From Piscicola geometra (Eukaryota; Annelida; Clitellata; Hirudinida; Piscicolidae): a stretch of DNA of 64,000 nt. This document shows positions 20,701 to 51,692 of the stretch, piece after piece; positions within the stretch are counted from its first letter, which is position 1, and the number at the start of each line of letters is the position of its first letter. A model generated the notes under the pieces. The model was not told the DNA's origin. It made no database searches and saw nothing but the letters and a program-made list of their open reading frames with translations. Location of the stretch: NCBI GenBank assembly GCA_943735955.1, contig OX030962.1, forward strand, positions 196,501 through 260,500, read 5' to 3'. A program made the position numbers and the translations under genes.

Positions 20701-23700
20701 GTGGTGATGATGAGGGTGATGATGATGATGATGAGGGTGGTGGTGTTTGTTGGTGGTGATGATGATGATGAGGGTGGTGGTGTTTGTTGGTGGTGATGAT
20801 GATGATGATGATGATGATGAGGGTGGTCGTGTTTGTTGGTGATGATGATGATGAGGGTGATGATGATGATGATGATGATGATGAGGGTGGTCGTGTTTGT
20901 TGGTGGTGCTGATGATGATGATGATGATGATGAGGGTGGTCGTGTTTGTTGGTGGTGATGATGATGATGAGGGTGGTGTTTGTTGGTGATGATGATGATG
21001 AGGCGGGTCGTGTTTGTTGGTGGTGATGATGATGAGGGTGGTCGTGTTTGTTGGTGATGATGATGATGAGGGTGGTGTTTTGGTGTTGGTGGCTTGTAAA
21101 TAAATAAGTAATAAATAAATTTGTGGGTTTTAGGTGGTGTTTATGATGATATGTTGGTGGTGGTGTTGAGGTGCGGTTGTTGGGGTGGTTTTGTTTTGGT
21201 GGTGTGGTTGTTGGTGGTAAGGTTGTTGGTGGTTGGGTTGTTGGTGGTGGTGGTGTTGGTGATGGGGCTTTTGGTGGTGGGGATGTTGGTCGTGTGGTTG
21301 TTGGTGGTGGGGATGTTGGTCGTGTGGTTGTTGGTGGTGGGGATGTTGGTCGTGTGGTTGTTGGTGGTGGGGATGTTGGTCGTGTAGTTGTTGGTGGTGG
21401 GGTTGTTGGTGGTGTGGTTGTTGGTGGTGGGGATGTTGGTGGTGTGGTTGTTGGTGGTGTGGTTGTTGGTGGTGTGGTTGTTGGGGTGGTTTTGTGTTAG
21501 TGGTGTGGTTGACGTGTTTTTGGTGTGATTGGTCATTCATGAGGTTGTTGAGGTGTTGGTGGTGAGCGTGTTGGCTTAGATGGTAAGTCATAGGACTTGC
21601 AACTTAAAGGTCGCAGGTTCGAACCCCCTGATGAGCAACCGTGAGCTATCATATACCTAGTTTCGTGCCTTGGCGCTTTATAAAGACGCATTATTTGTTA
21701 TATATTTATTGTTATTAATATTTATTCGAGTGAGGTTTATGGGCAGTTAATGATCGCTTGTGTCAACAATTTATGAAAGTCCCTCCTGGTGATGAGTGGG
21801 ATGTTGAGTATTCAAGTGTGCTGATCAGGCTGTGGCAGTGCTTTTGATCATAATCAAGATGATGATGCTGATGATGATAATGATACAGTCTCTTTGAGAA
21901 GCTGGACGACAACAGACAGGCTGCAGGGGCGTACACTGCATACATCAACGAGACCATCCAGGTCTCCATCACCCTCTCCTTCCAACAAAACACACAACAC
22001 CACATAAAACAAAAAACCGCACACACATAACACACACACACACAGATCCGCAGGGAAGGACAGGCGCACGCCTTCTGCTTCCTAGCAAACTACCACTTGA
22101 CGCAGCAGAACTTCGAGGACGCCTACATCGCTGCCCAACGATGCTCCGACTACCCTGAGGTTCTTGCTCTTGTTGTTGAGTTTTTGTTGCTCCTAATGTT
22201 GTTAATGTTGTTTGTTGCTCCTAATGTTACTGTTGCTGCTAATGTTGCTTAATGAATAAAAGATCTTTTTACTTTTTAGTTAATTTTTTTAAAATTAAAA
22301 CAAAAAAATATTTTAATCATCTATAAATCATTGAATAAATAGGTAAATTAAAATAATATTTTAAATATAAATTTTAAATACCGTTTTAAAATGTTTATAG
22401 AGCACTTTTTTATCTCTAGAATTTGCTTTCGAGTGCTAGTGCGCCTTATACATGGAGCTTTTCGTTAGAGCTAGCTTGAGACCTCCAGGGCACAGTATTT
22501 GTTGACTAGCTTTTTGAATAAGTAATTGAAAGAGTACTTGACTGAGTAATTGACTGAGTACTTGAATAAGTAATTGACTGAGTACTTGAATAAGTAATTG
22601 ACTGAGTACTTGAATAAGTAATTGACTGAGTAATTGAATAAGTAATTGACTGAGTACTTGAATAAGTAATTGACTGAGTACTTGAATAAGTAATTGACTG
22701 AGTACTTGAATAAGTAATTGACTGAGTACTTGAATAAGTAATTGACTGAGTACTTGAATAAGTAATTGACTGAGTAATTGAATAAGTAATTGACTGAGTA
22801 CTTGAATAAGTAATTGACTGAGTACTTGAATAAGTAATTGACTGAGTACTTGAATAAGTAATTGACTGAGTACTTGAATAAGTAATTGACTGAGTAATTG
22901 AATAAGTAATTGACTGAGTACTTGACTAAGTAATTGACTGAGTAATTGAATAAGTAATTGACTGAGTAATTGAATAAGTAATTGACTGAGTACTTGACTA
23001 AGTAATTGACTGAGTACTTGAATAAGTAATTGACTGAGTACTTGAATAAGTAATTGACTGAGTACTTGACTAAGTAATTGACTGAGTACTTGAATAAGTA
23101 ATTGACTGAGTACTTGAATAAGTAATTGACTGAGTACTTGAATAAGTAATTGACTGAGTACTTGAATAAGTAATTGACTGAGTACTTGAATAAGTAATTG
23201 ACTGAGTACTTGAATAAGTAATTGACTGAGTACTTGACTAAGTAATTGACTGAGTACTTGAATAAGTAATTGACTGAGTACTTGAATAAGTAATTGACTG
23301 AGTACTTGAATAAGTAATTGACTGAGTACTTGAATAAGTAATTGACTGAGTACTTGACTAAGTAATTGACTGAGTACTTGACTAAGTAATTGACTGAGTA
23401 CTTGAATAAGTAATTGACTGAGTACTTGAATAAGTAATTGACTGAGTACTTGAATAAGTAATTGACTGAGTACTTGACTAAGTAATTGACTGAGTACTTG
23501 AATAAGTAATTGACTGAGTACTTGAATAAGTAATTGACTGAGTACTTGAATAAGTAATTGACTGAGTAATTGAATAAGTAATTGACTGAGTAATTGAATA
23601 AGTAATTGACTGAGTAATTGAATAAGTAATTGACTGAGTACTTGAATAAGTAATTGACTGAGTACTTGAATAAGTACTTGACTGAGTACTTGAATAAGTA

Positions 23701-50700: not shown

Positions 50701-51692
50701 TGACTGAGTACTTGAATAAGTAATTGACTGAGTACTTGAATAAGTAATTGACTGAGTACTTGAATAAGTAATTGACTGAGTACTTGAATAAGTAATTGAT
50801 TGAGTACTTGAATAAGTAATTGACTGAGTACTTGAATAAGTAATTGACTGAGTAATTGAATAAGTAATTGACTGAGTAATTGAATAAGTACTTGACTGAG
50901 TACTTGACTAAGTAATTGATTGAGTACTTGAATAAGTAATTGACTGAGTACTTGAATAAGTAATTGACTGAGTACTTGAATAAGTAATTGACTGAGTACT
51001 TGAATAAGTAATTGACTGAGTAATTGAATAAGTACTTGACTGAGTACTTGACTAAGTAATTGATTGAGTACTTGAATAAGTAATTGACTGAGTACTTGAA
51101 TAAGTACTTGACTGAGTAATTGAATAAGTAATTGACTGAGTACTTGAATAAGTAATTGACTGAGTACTTGAATAAGTAATTGACTGAGTAATTGAATAAG
51201 TAATTGACTGAGTAATTGAATAAGTACTTGACTGAGTACTTGAATAAGTACTTGACTGAGTAATTGAATAAGTAATTGACTGAGTAATTGAATAAGTAAT
51301 TGACTGAGTAATTGAATAAGTAATTGACTGAGTAATTGAATAAGTAATTGACTGAGTACTTGAATAAGTAATTGACTGAGTACTTGAATAAGTAATTGAT
51401 TAATTGTTTGACTGATGGATTGATTGAAGGTGAAGGAGGAAGGAAAGGCACTCTTGAAGCAGCTGGCTGGCTGCAGACTTACACAGGTTTGTGGTGTTGC
51501 CGATGTTCGTATTGTCGTGGTGCTGATGATGATGCTGAGTAAGGTCACACCAAGCAGAGCACTTAGATAAGCCCCCGATGATAACGACAGGAGGAAGGCA
51601 GACAGTCCACCTGCCCACCTGGCAATAGTGACCTTCCGGACGCTTCCCTGGAGCCTTCCACCCCGTCATCACTCGAAGTTACCGACTCTTAA
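14834..51692 (+). CDS. CDC23: CDC23/APC8, anaphase-promoting complex TPR subunit (16 exons, 570 aa)
   Basis: Scaffold TPR subunit of the APC/C ubiquitin ligase that drives mitotic exit. Exons: 14834-14937, 15018-15102, 15273-15453, 15689-15779, 17140-17272, 17533-17647, 17740-17805, 18280-18377, 18735-18816, 19635-19799, 19974-20082, 20559-20696, 21889-21961, 22046-22159, 51430-51486, 51591-51692. Phases agree throughout; the 1,713 nt give 570 residues against 597 in human. Family blocks are unmistakable: YGVVLSKLDL, ENMDTYSNLLYIR, DIDKYRVETCC, AWTLMGHEYMELK, RDYRAWYGLGQTYEILK, CYWKARSLGD. Exon 15 reads EEGKALLKQL, matching the family C-terminus, and exon 16 ends EVTDS then TAA at 51690. An in-frame stop at 14807 and the Met at 14834 set the start. 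Exon 12's donor (20697) was chosen for phase. Exon 16's acceptor could lie 15 bp later. Intron 14 is 29,270 bp, nearly all satellite. Confidence 0.93.
15780..17139. other. CDC23 intron 4 interior
   Basis: 1.36 kb of mostly AT-rich sequence. A C/G-homopolymer-rich stretch lies at 16005-16075. No coding exon or named repeat is recognised. Confidence 0.5.
17661..17738 (+). repeat. (CA)n ending in CDC23 exon 7 acceptor
   Basis: Nearly the whole 92-bp intron 6 is CA repeat, continuous with the acceptor CACACAG before 17740. Confidence 0.93.
17812..18185 (+). repeat. TCATCA-based minisatellite in CDC23 intron 7
   Basis: Blocks of 3-8 TCA triplets alternate with CCTCCCTTT or CTTCCTTTT spacers over about 375 bp. 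Confidence 0.9.
18640..18733 (+). repeat. CACACCTACCA simple repeat ending at CDC23 exon 9
   Basis: Imperfect ACC/CAC-rich repeat that leads into the acceptor CCACACAG before 18735. Confidence 0.8.
18833..19310 (+). repeat. 22-bp minisatellite in CDC23 intron 9
   Basis: Repeats of about 22 bp built from CTGCTGCTATTACC and ACCACCACTCA, with variant and longer duplicated blocks; 18970-18995 and 19102-19127 share the rare CTCTTACTAATGCC variant. Confidence 0.88.
19436..19570 (+). repeat. 22-bp CGACCACAC minisatellite in CDC23 intron 9
   Basis: About six copies of a unit containing CGACCACACATTCACC followed by ACGCCA. Confidence 0.9.
20701..21075 (+). repeat. GATGAT/GGGTGGT minisatellite in CDC23 intron 12
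   Basis: Variable GATGATGAT blocks alternate with GAGGGTGGTCGTGTTTGTTG; the unit is roughly 35-50 bp. It begins at the exon 12 donor. Confidence 0.88.
21180..21490 (+). repeat. 30-bp TTGGTGGTG minisatellite in CDC23 intron 12
   Basis: Copies of TTGGTGGTGGGGATG then TTGGTCGTGTGG, almost pure G and T on the plus strand. Confidence 0.88.
21563..21700 (+). mobile_element. tRNA-derived SINE, copy 2
   Basis: A box TGGCTTAGATGG (21572-21583) and a canonical B box GGTTCGAACCC (about 21616). The body GTGAGCTATCATATACCTAG is shared with the copy at 7966-8168, and the tail is TTGGCGCTTTATAAAG. The head resembles a tRNA with a possible GCA anticodon, but the fused body and repeat nature make it a SINE. 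It lies in CDC23 intron 12, sense strand. Confidence 0.85.
22513..51400. repeat. 24-bp tandem satellite, about 1,200 copies, in CDC23 intron 14
   Basis: 28.9 kb of uninterrupted head-to-tail 24-bp units. Each is two related 12-mers, TAATTGACTGAG and TACTTGAATAAG, which match at 9 of 12 positions. Variation is confined to few sites: C or A at position 3 of either half, gaataag or gactaag, gactgag or rare gattgag, and TGC variants at 40824, 40848 and 42312. Only two length changes were noticed, identical 1-bp deletions at 43560 and 43847. On the reverse strand all three frames are stop-free, giving a 9,671-codon open frame. On the forward strand all three frames have stops. There is no start context, codon bias or domain to support a protein. 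The array degenerates into the 3' splice site of CDC23 exon 15. Confidence 0.97.

What the first reader, a model, noticed from the sequence alone, without database searches (positions are those of the whole stretch)
22160..51429. A 29-kb tandem satellite sits inside intron 14 of the essential cell-cycle gene CDC23
CDC23 exons 1-14 end at 22159 with DYPE and a phase-0 donor. Directly beyond the array, 51430-51486 reads EEGKALLKQL, the expected next block of APC8, then a last exon and AATAAA at 51739. The intron is thus 29,270 bp of which about 98.7% is one 24-bp repeat, and its last 30 bp before the acceptor look like decayed repeat. Every APC8 mRNA would need a splice across about 1,200 identical units. 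Giant satellite introns are known from Drosophila Y genes; in a conserved APC/C gene this seems new.
Basis: partly seen in the sequence, partly recalled or inferred. Interest (0 to 1): 0.88.

Follow-up and report, generated by a model that had tools for sequence, protein, structure and literature searches.

The report
Giant one-locus minisatellite in CDC23 intron
In what is probably a fish leech, one predicted intron of the cell-division gene CDC23 is filled with about 1,200 near-identical copies of a 24-letter sequence (29 kb) that turned up nowhere else in the searched assembly, so the gene's message would likely have to be spliced across all of it; similar giant repeats are known in human introns, so it is a striking example rather than a new kind of thing.

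Summary
A 16-exon CDC23/APC8 gene (570 aa) can be rebuilt; 15 of 15 introns are GT-AG. Predicted intron 14 (22160-51429, 29,270 bp) is 98.7% a 24-bp tandem array (22514-51399, 1,203.7 copies); the gene's other introns are 80-1,360 bp. Exon 15 starts at 51430 (VKEEGKALLKQL). The alignment is gapless there for 8 of 8 relatives aligned. The closest (80% identical) lies on a contig of at most 1,809 bp, too short for such introns, so that relative very likely makes the joined mRNA.

New here: 1,199 of 1,199 genome-wide matches to the unit (up to 3 mismatches, both strands) lie in this array, in one orientation. It is a single-locus minisatellite, not a dispersed satellite. The 28 bp before the acceptor AG match (TTGA)n at 24 of 28 positions (0 of 20,000 shuffles) and are in register with the array, so growth in place is likely.

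Closest known cases are human intronic VNTRs: CACNA1C (30 bp, 3-30+ kb) and ABCA7 (25 bp, includes a splice donor, >10 kb). It is a new member of a known kind. No RNA or reads were available: splicing, array length and any function are untested. The organism is inferred (Piscicola geometra).

The parts
14834..22159 (+). CDC23/APC8 exons 1-14 (first ATG 14834; exon 14 = 22046-22159) with introns 1-13 of 80-1,360 bp
   Evidence: tblastn with a recalled human APC8, exon model, intron lengths, human APC8 in the PDB E 1.2e-158
22160..51429 (+). predicted intron 14, 29,270 bp, donor GAG|GTTCTT, acceptor GAAG|GTG, phase 0
   Evidence: no RNA seen
22160..22513 (+). 354 bp between donor and array; frame stays open 30 codons past the donor to TAA; AATAAA/ATTAAA at 22255, 22294, 22334, 22347 (possible intronic poly(A))
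   Evidence: sequence
22514..51399 (+). 24-bp tandem array, 1,203.7 copies, unit = two related 12-mers TTGACTGAGTAC + TTGAATAAGTAA
33170..38600 (+). approximate region of the best internal block duplication (33938 and 36722, exact over 911 bp; shift 2,784-2,856 bp)
   Evidence: outer limits approximate
51400..51429 (+). degenerate (TTGA)n tract in the array's 12-bp register that ends in the 3' splice-site AG
51430..51486 (+). exon 15, VKEEGKALLKQLAGCRLTQ
51591..51692 (+). exon 16 (last), stop TAA ending at 51692; start of this exon less certain because the C-terminal tail is poorly conserved
51739..51744 (+). AATAAA, likely poly(A) signal of the gene
   Evidence: sequence

Best explanation
Window 22160-51429 is the predicted intron 14 of a single-copy CDC23/APC8 gene, and 98.7% of it is a 24-bp tandem array found only at this locus, which likely grew in place from a TTGA-type tract at the intron's own 3' end and is predicted to be transcribed and spliced out as one 29-kb intron. 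Proposed steps: a (TTGA)n tract next to the 3' splice site gave a 12-bp unit (inferred); two diverged 12-mers became a 24-bp unit (the strict alternation is shown, the order inferred); slippage and unequal exchange, with at least one block duplication of about 2.8 kb, took it to about 1,200 copies (blocks shown, process inferred). The array is probably tolerated because nearly all of the added length is one unit without a poly(A) hexamer and, by a matrix made from this gene's other introns, with almost no splice site as good as the real ones (shown by that matrix, not by a generic consensus; causal role inferred). The likely net effect is only a longer transcript, roughly 10-30 minutes more at 1-3 kb per minute (rate recalled).
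For: Gene and junction: 16 exons, 15 of 15 introns GT-AG, 570 aa; human APC8 E 1.2e-158; gapless alignment with 8 of 8 relatives chosen from the 120 listed, E521, E522, K524, L527 in exon 15 invariant. P0001, 80% identical over 99%, reads CSDYPEVKEEGKALLKQLAG across the junction and lies on a contig of at most 1,809 bp. In the genome, 16 of 19 matches to the protein lie on C8 in the window; the two covering residues 515-570 lie just past the array; the other 3 are weak (25-41% identity) on C3 and C4. One locus: 1,199 forward and 0 reverse matches to the 24-mer with up to 3 mismatches in 171 Mb, and the window's array holds 1,199. Seed: 24 of 28 bases before the AG fit (TTGA)n, 0 of 20,000 shuffles; 12-bp register runs unbroken to 51420. 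Growth: only 18 unit types; best 40-unit block match 0.95 against 0.70-0.83 in 10 permutations. Few competitors: array 0 donors, 1 acceptor, 0 poly(A) hexamers at or above the real sites; 11 other stretches of this genome, both strands, scaled to equal length, 23-705, 410-1,329 and 0-286.
Against: No RNA and no reads were available. By a generic donor consensus (recalled) the array is not silent: 1,087 of 2,406 GTs match it at 6 of 9 positions against 5 of 9 for the real donor. The matrix rests on 14 sites. A random 24-mer in tandem is equally free of all three signals in 1,399 of 4,000 draws, so no selection is shown. The real acceptor is weak (AAG, 39% pyrimidine, rank 13 of 15; donor rank 11 of 15). 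Poly(A) hexamers before the array allow an early end. Seeding from the TTGA tract could run the other way: the tract may be decayed array.
Confidence: 0.75

Rival explanations
1. Most CDC23 mRNA ends in intron 14 before the array (intronic polyadenylation), giving a protein without the last 52 residues; exons 15-16 are used rarely or not at all.
For: The frame stays open 30 codons past the donor to TAA, and AATAAA follows at 22255, with three more hexamers before the array. The real donor and acceptor are among the weaker ones of the gene.
Against: Exon 15 is conserved in 8 of 8 relatives aligned, and in P0001 17 of its 19 residues are the same (counted by eye); decay would be expected if it were unused. 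Hexamers are frequent in AT-rich DNA of this genome.
Confidence: 0.1
2. The array is real, but its length or place is an assembly error (collapse, expansion or a join of two loci).
For: A 28.9-kb array is longer than usual HiFi reads (read length recalled). No reads or second haplotype were available. The published assembly has 254 contigs in 69 scaffolds (PMC11134150, passages).
Against: No N in the window; longest exact internal repeat 911 bp; both flanks carry consecutive exons of one gene in the right order, strand and phase; the unit occurs nowhere else, so there is no second array to join. A few kb too many or too few cannot be excluded.
Confidence: 0.1
3. The array does something: it slows CDC23 expression in proportion to length, or binds a protein (the unit holds TAATTGA, a homeodomain-like core by recall, 1,388 copies).
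For: Long intron delay and satellite introns with their own expression programme are described (PMC4209130, listing; PMC6508621, passages); long alleles of the CACNA1C array go with lower expression in fibroblasts and testis (PMC13131567, abstract). Motif count.
Against: Motif counts follow from one repeated unit and are a single event. RNA fold of three 120-nt pieces is near that of shuffles (z -1.0, -1.3, -1.6). No conservation could be tested.
Confidence: 0.08
4. The array is coding on the minus strand (a giant repetitive protein).
For: A stop-free minus-strand frame of 9,680 aa spans 22436-51478.
Against: The reverse complement of the unit simply lacks stops. In the two frames without stops 0 of 4 common variants are synonymous; in the third, one is synonymous and one makes a stop. 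Two 1-bp deletions shift the frame.
Confidence: 0.02

Closest known systems
CACNA1C intronic VNTR 'TRACT' (human; PMC13131567, abstract and sections 3 and 12 read)
   Same: Single-locus minisatellite (30 bp) in an intron of a conserved gene; 3-30+ kb; few unit variants interspersed; growth attributed to perfect runs later broken by variants
   Different: Here the array is 98.7% of the intron and ends 30 bp before a 3' splice site; invertebrate cell-cycle gene; longest perfect run 13 units against 26 in the shortest long CACNA1C alleles; length variation unknown
ABCA7 intron 18 VNTR (human; PMC5954066 passages, PMC6857246 passages)
   Same: 25-bp unit, intronic, in contact with a splice site (its first GT is the exon 18 donor); alleles above 10 kb
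   Different: At the donor instead of the acceptor side; its unit carries a donor-like site per copy (5 in 6 units by the matrix), the CDC23 unit none; known effect on splicing, here untested
Satellite-filled giant introns of Drosophila Y genes kl-3, kl-5 (PMC6508621, passages)
   Same: An intron made almost wholly of short tandem repeats, predicted to be transcribed and removed
   Different: Those are megabases of simple satellite on a Y chromosome in testis genes; here 29 kb, unit private to one locus, in a hermaphrodite (PMC11134150, passages) if the species is right
C. elegans intronic minisatellites near alternative exons, CeRep25B (PMC4039745, abstract)
   Same: Minisatellites inside introns next to splice decisions
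   Different: A dispersed family; no dispersed copies here

Membership tests
Giant intronic minisatellite / VNTR | tandem unit of 7 bp or more, kilobases long | tested here: met
   24 bp x 1,203.7
Giant intronic minisatellite / VNTR | single locus | tested here: met
   1,199 of 1,199 matches in this array; stretches read as N could not be searched
Giant intronic minisatellite / VNTR | inside an intron of a protein-coding gene | tested here: met
   by homology and phase, not by RNA
Giant intronic minisatellite / VNTR | copy number varies among individuals | not testable with these tools
   one assembly only
Drosophila-Y-type satellite intron | satellite shared with other (heterochromatic) places | tested here: not met
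   no match elsewhere in 171 Mb; that sharing defines the class is recalled
Drosophila-Y-type satellite intron | sex-linked, male-germline gene | tested here: inconclusive
   on C8 of a genome inferred to be a hermaphrodite leech; expression not testable
CDC23/APC8 | full-length TPR protein aligning end to end with APC8 | tested here: met
   query 10-553 to human 29-574; 80% to P0001 over 99%
Coding tandem repeat (antisense) | variants mostly synonymous, frame kept | tested here: not met

The most novel reading that the evidence does not exclude
The CDC23 array is a splice-silent, length-tunable spacer: because its unit carries no competing splice or poly(A) site, unequal exchange can add or remove kilobases without changing the mRNA, so individuals differ in how long APC8 takes to be transcribed, a natural length series for intron delay in a core cell-cycle gene.
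Probability: 0.1. Interest if true: 0.75.

Novelty: new member of a known kind. Interest (0 to 1): 0.42.

Why it matters
It shows that one intron of a conserved and, in well-studied animals, essential gene (recalled) can become almost pure minisatellite up to its 3' splice site without visible damage to the gene model. The array lies at one locus, in one orientation, with a probable seed next to it, so the birth and growth of a giant VNTR can be followed in sister leeches. It gives a testable rule: long intronic arrays persist where the unit is free of splice and poly(A) signals (CDC23) and disturb splicing where it is not (ABCA7). If alleles differ in length, it is also a natural test of intron delay in a cell-cycle gene.

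Tried and rejected
Dispersed satellite or transposon origin: rejected, no match elsewhere. A DNA similarity search with four units gave nothing even at this locus; that tool skips simple repeats, so I used pattern searches. Antisense coding: rejected. RNA genes: Rfam 0 matches, ARAGORN 0 genes. Strong RNA structure: not seen. Selection for splice silence: not shown, since 1,399 of 4,000 random 24-mers are as silent and a generic donor consensus disagrees. A gradient of age along the array: none seen (identity at lag 24 is 0.94-0.985 in all 24 bins). Background of tandem repeats in the genome: 100 random 10-kb stretches were drawn but only the first 10 fetched; tandem fractions 0.57, 0.02 (that stretch 75% N), 0.57, 1.00, 0.22, 0.06, 0.04, 0.02, 0.01, 0.51. 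One stretch (L021) is wholly a 66-bp array, perhaps coding; the largest array in the other 9 is about 1.7 kb. The genome is thus repeat-rich, but the sample is too small to rank this array. First exon model had wrong ends for exons 5, 8 and 12; mended by protein alignment. Papers: the last search with CDC23 as a term showed 10 of 1,148 papers, none of these 10 with the word CDC23; this does not prove absence in print.
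Full report
What the window is. It is G000:C8:196501-260500 of a 171,024,195-bp assembly in 66 contigs. The best CDC23 match is an unnamed 80% relative and the next is the leech Helobdella robusta at 57%. A genome note for the fish leech Piscicola geometra (PMC11134150, passages) gives 171.1 Mb, 69 scaffolds and 17 chromosomes. Of 8 contig lengths that I saw and could compare with its printed table, 7 agree to the printed digit (C2, C5, C6, C7, C8, C15, C16) and C1 is 0.02 Mb shorter. 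The species is thus very probably P. geometra, assembled from 76-fold HiFi reads with hifiasm; this is inference.

The gene. tblastn with a recalled human APC8 found the exons in order, and a 16-exon model gives 570 aa with 15 of 15 introns GT-AG. The match to human APC8 in the PDB has E 1.2e-158. The gene's other 14 introns are 80-1,360 bp; intron 14 is 29,270 bp. A search of the whole assembly gave 19 matches: 16 in this gene on C8, 3 weak ones (25-41% identity) on C3 and C4. So the gene is single copy in this assembly and its 3' exons lie only beyond the array.

The junction. Exon 14 ends ...CSDYPE and exon 15 begins VKEEGKALLKQL. The alignment with 8 relatives is gapless there, and E521, E522, K524 and L527 are invariant. 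P0001 carries the same junction (CSDYPEVKEEGKALLKQLAG) on contigs of at most 1,809 bp, hardly longer than its 564 codons. That is best read as spliced mRNA of a relative; it is not proof for this species. Exon 16 is less certain since the tail is poorly conserved.

The array. TRF: 22514-51399, 24 bp, 1,203.7 copies, 96% matches. The unit is two 12-mers that alternate with almost no exception (two same-class neighbours), TTGACTGAGTAC and TTGAATAAGTAA. There are 18 types of 24-mer; four biallelic sites make most of the variation; the longest perfect run is 13 units. Identity is even along the array. Unit types are arranged almost at random (neighbours alike 0.45, expected 0.41), but one block is repeated 2.8 kb away (911 bp exact). 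Two 1-bp deletions with the same surroundings lie 287 bp apart.

One locus. The 24-mer with up to 3 mismatches has 1,199 forward and 0 reverse matches in the assembly, and the window's array holds exactly 1,199. Stretches that read N could not be searched. The array is therefore a single-locus minisatellite in one orientation. It lies at C8:219014-247899, about 0.22 Mb from a contig end. In humans, large GC-rich VNTRs are enriched near chromosome ends (PMC7608644, passages); this array is AT-rich (about 29% GC).

Origin. The 28 bases before the acceptor AG fit (TTGA)n at 24 positions; 0 of 20,000 letter shuffles reach that. The array's 12-bp register runs on through this tract to the splice site. 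The simplest reading is that a TTGA tract beside the 3' splice site was the seed. The reverse, that the tract is decayed array, is not excluded.

How it may be tolerated. A matrix from the gene's other 14 introns ranks the real donor 11th and the real acceptor 13th of 15. Even so, the array has 0 donors, 1 acceptor and 0 AATAAA/ATTAAA at or above the real sites (with flanking context 2 acceptors). Eleven other stretches of this genome, both strands, scaled to the same length, have 23-705, 410-1,329 and 0-286. The antisense strand has 1,251 acceptors. Against this: by a generic donor consensus (recalled) 1,087 of 2,406 GTs in the array match better than the real donor, and 1,399 of 4,000 random 24-mers would be as silent. 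So silence may explain tolerance but shows no selection. The four common variants add no signal; 7 of 72 possible single changes would.

Alternative ends. The frame stays open 30 codons past the donor to TAA, followed by AATAAA at 22255 and three more hexamers before the array. An early-ending isoform is possible.

Known relatives. CACNA1C carries a 30-bp intronic VNTR of 3-30+ kb (PMC13131567; abstract and sections 3 and 12 read). ABCA7 carries a 25-bp VNTR that includes the exon 18 donor, with alleles of about 10 kb and length-dependent exon 19 skipping (PMC5954066, passages). Drosophila Y genes have satellite introns of megabases (PMC6508621, passages). The CDC23 array fits the first two by anatomy; length variation and effect are untested. 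Searches made for novelty; in what they listed I saw no CDC23 array, but the lists were capped.

Verdict. A real and extreme array in a well-supported intron, an ordinary kind of sequence in an unusual place and amount.

Noticed in passing
L021 (G000:C1:13656359-13666358): The whole 10-kb stretch is one 66-bp tandem array with a stop-free frame of 3,333 residues, Ser/Thr/Pro/Val-rich with 22-residue units (mucin-like); a second stop-free frame exists on the other strand.
   Followed up: partly
window 14938-51590, the 15 CDC23 introns: 6 of 15 donors have a pyrimidine at +3, 4 of them GTT (introns 5, 12, 14, 15): donor rules may be relaxed in this genome.
   Followed up: partly
window 22436-51478 (-): Stop-free minus-strand frame of 9,680 aa through the array; by-product of a unit whose reverse complement has no stop.
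   Followed up: yes
window 57101-57892 (-) and 62017-62805 (-), also 56884-57216 (-) and 61571-62131 (-): Two similar reverse-transcriptase-like stretches (GVPQGSILGPLLF, YADDSYIY) that look like broken non-LTR retrotransposons (motifs recalled).
   Followed up: no
window 2609-4633 (-): Two long open stretches that look like a MULE-type transposase with a SWIM-like Cys/His motif (by eye).
   Followed up: no
window 18823-19572, 20723-21511: Other CDC23 introns hold their own, different minisatellites (22-60 bp units), each under 0.6 kb.
   Followed up: partly
window 21560-21645, intron 12: tRNA-like stretch with GGTTCGAACCCC (B-box-like, recalled), perhaps a SINE; ARAGORN reports no tRNA.
   Followed up: no
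window 53069-53989: Two neighbouring minisatellites downstream of CDC23: 19 bp x 22.8 and 21 bp x 19.9.
   Followed up: no
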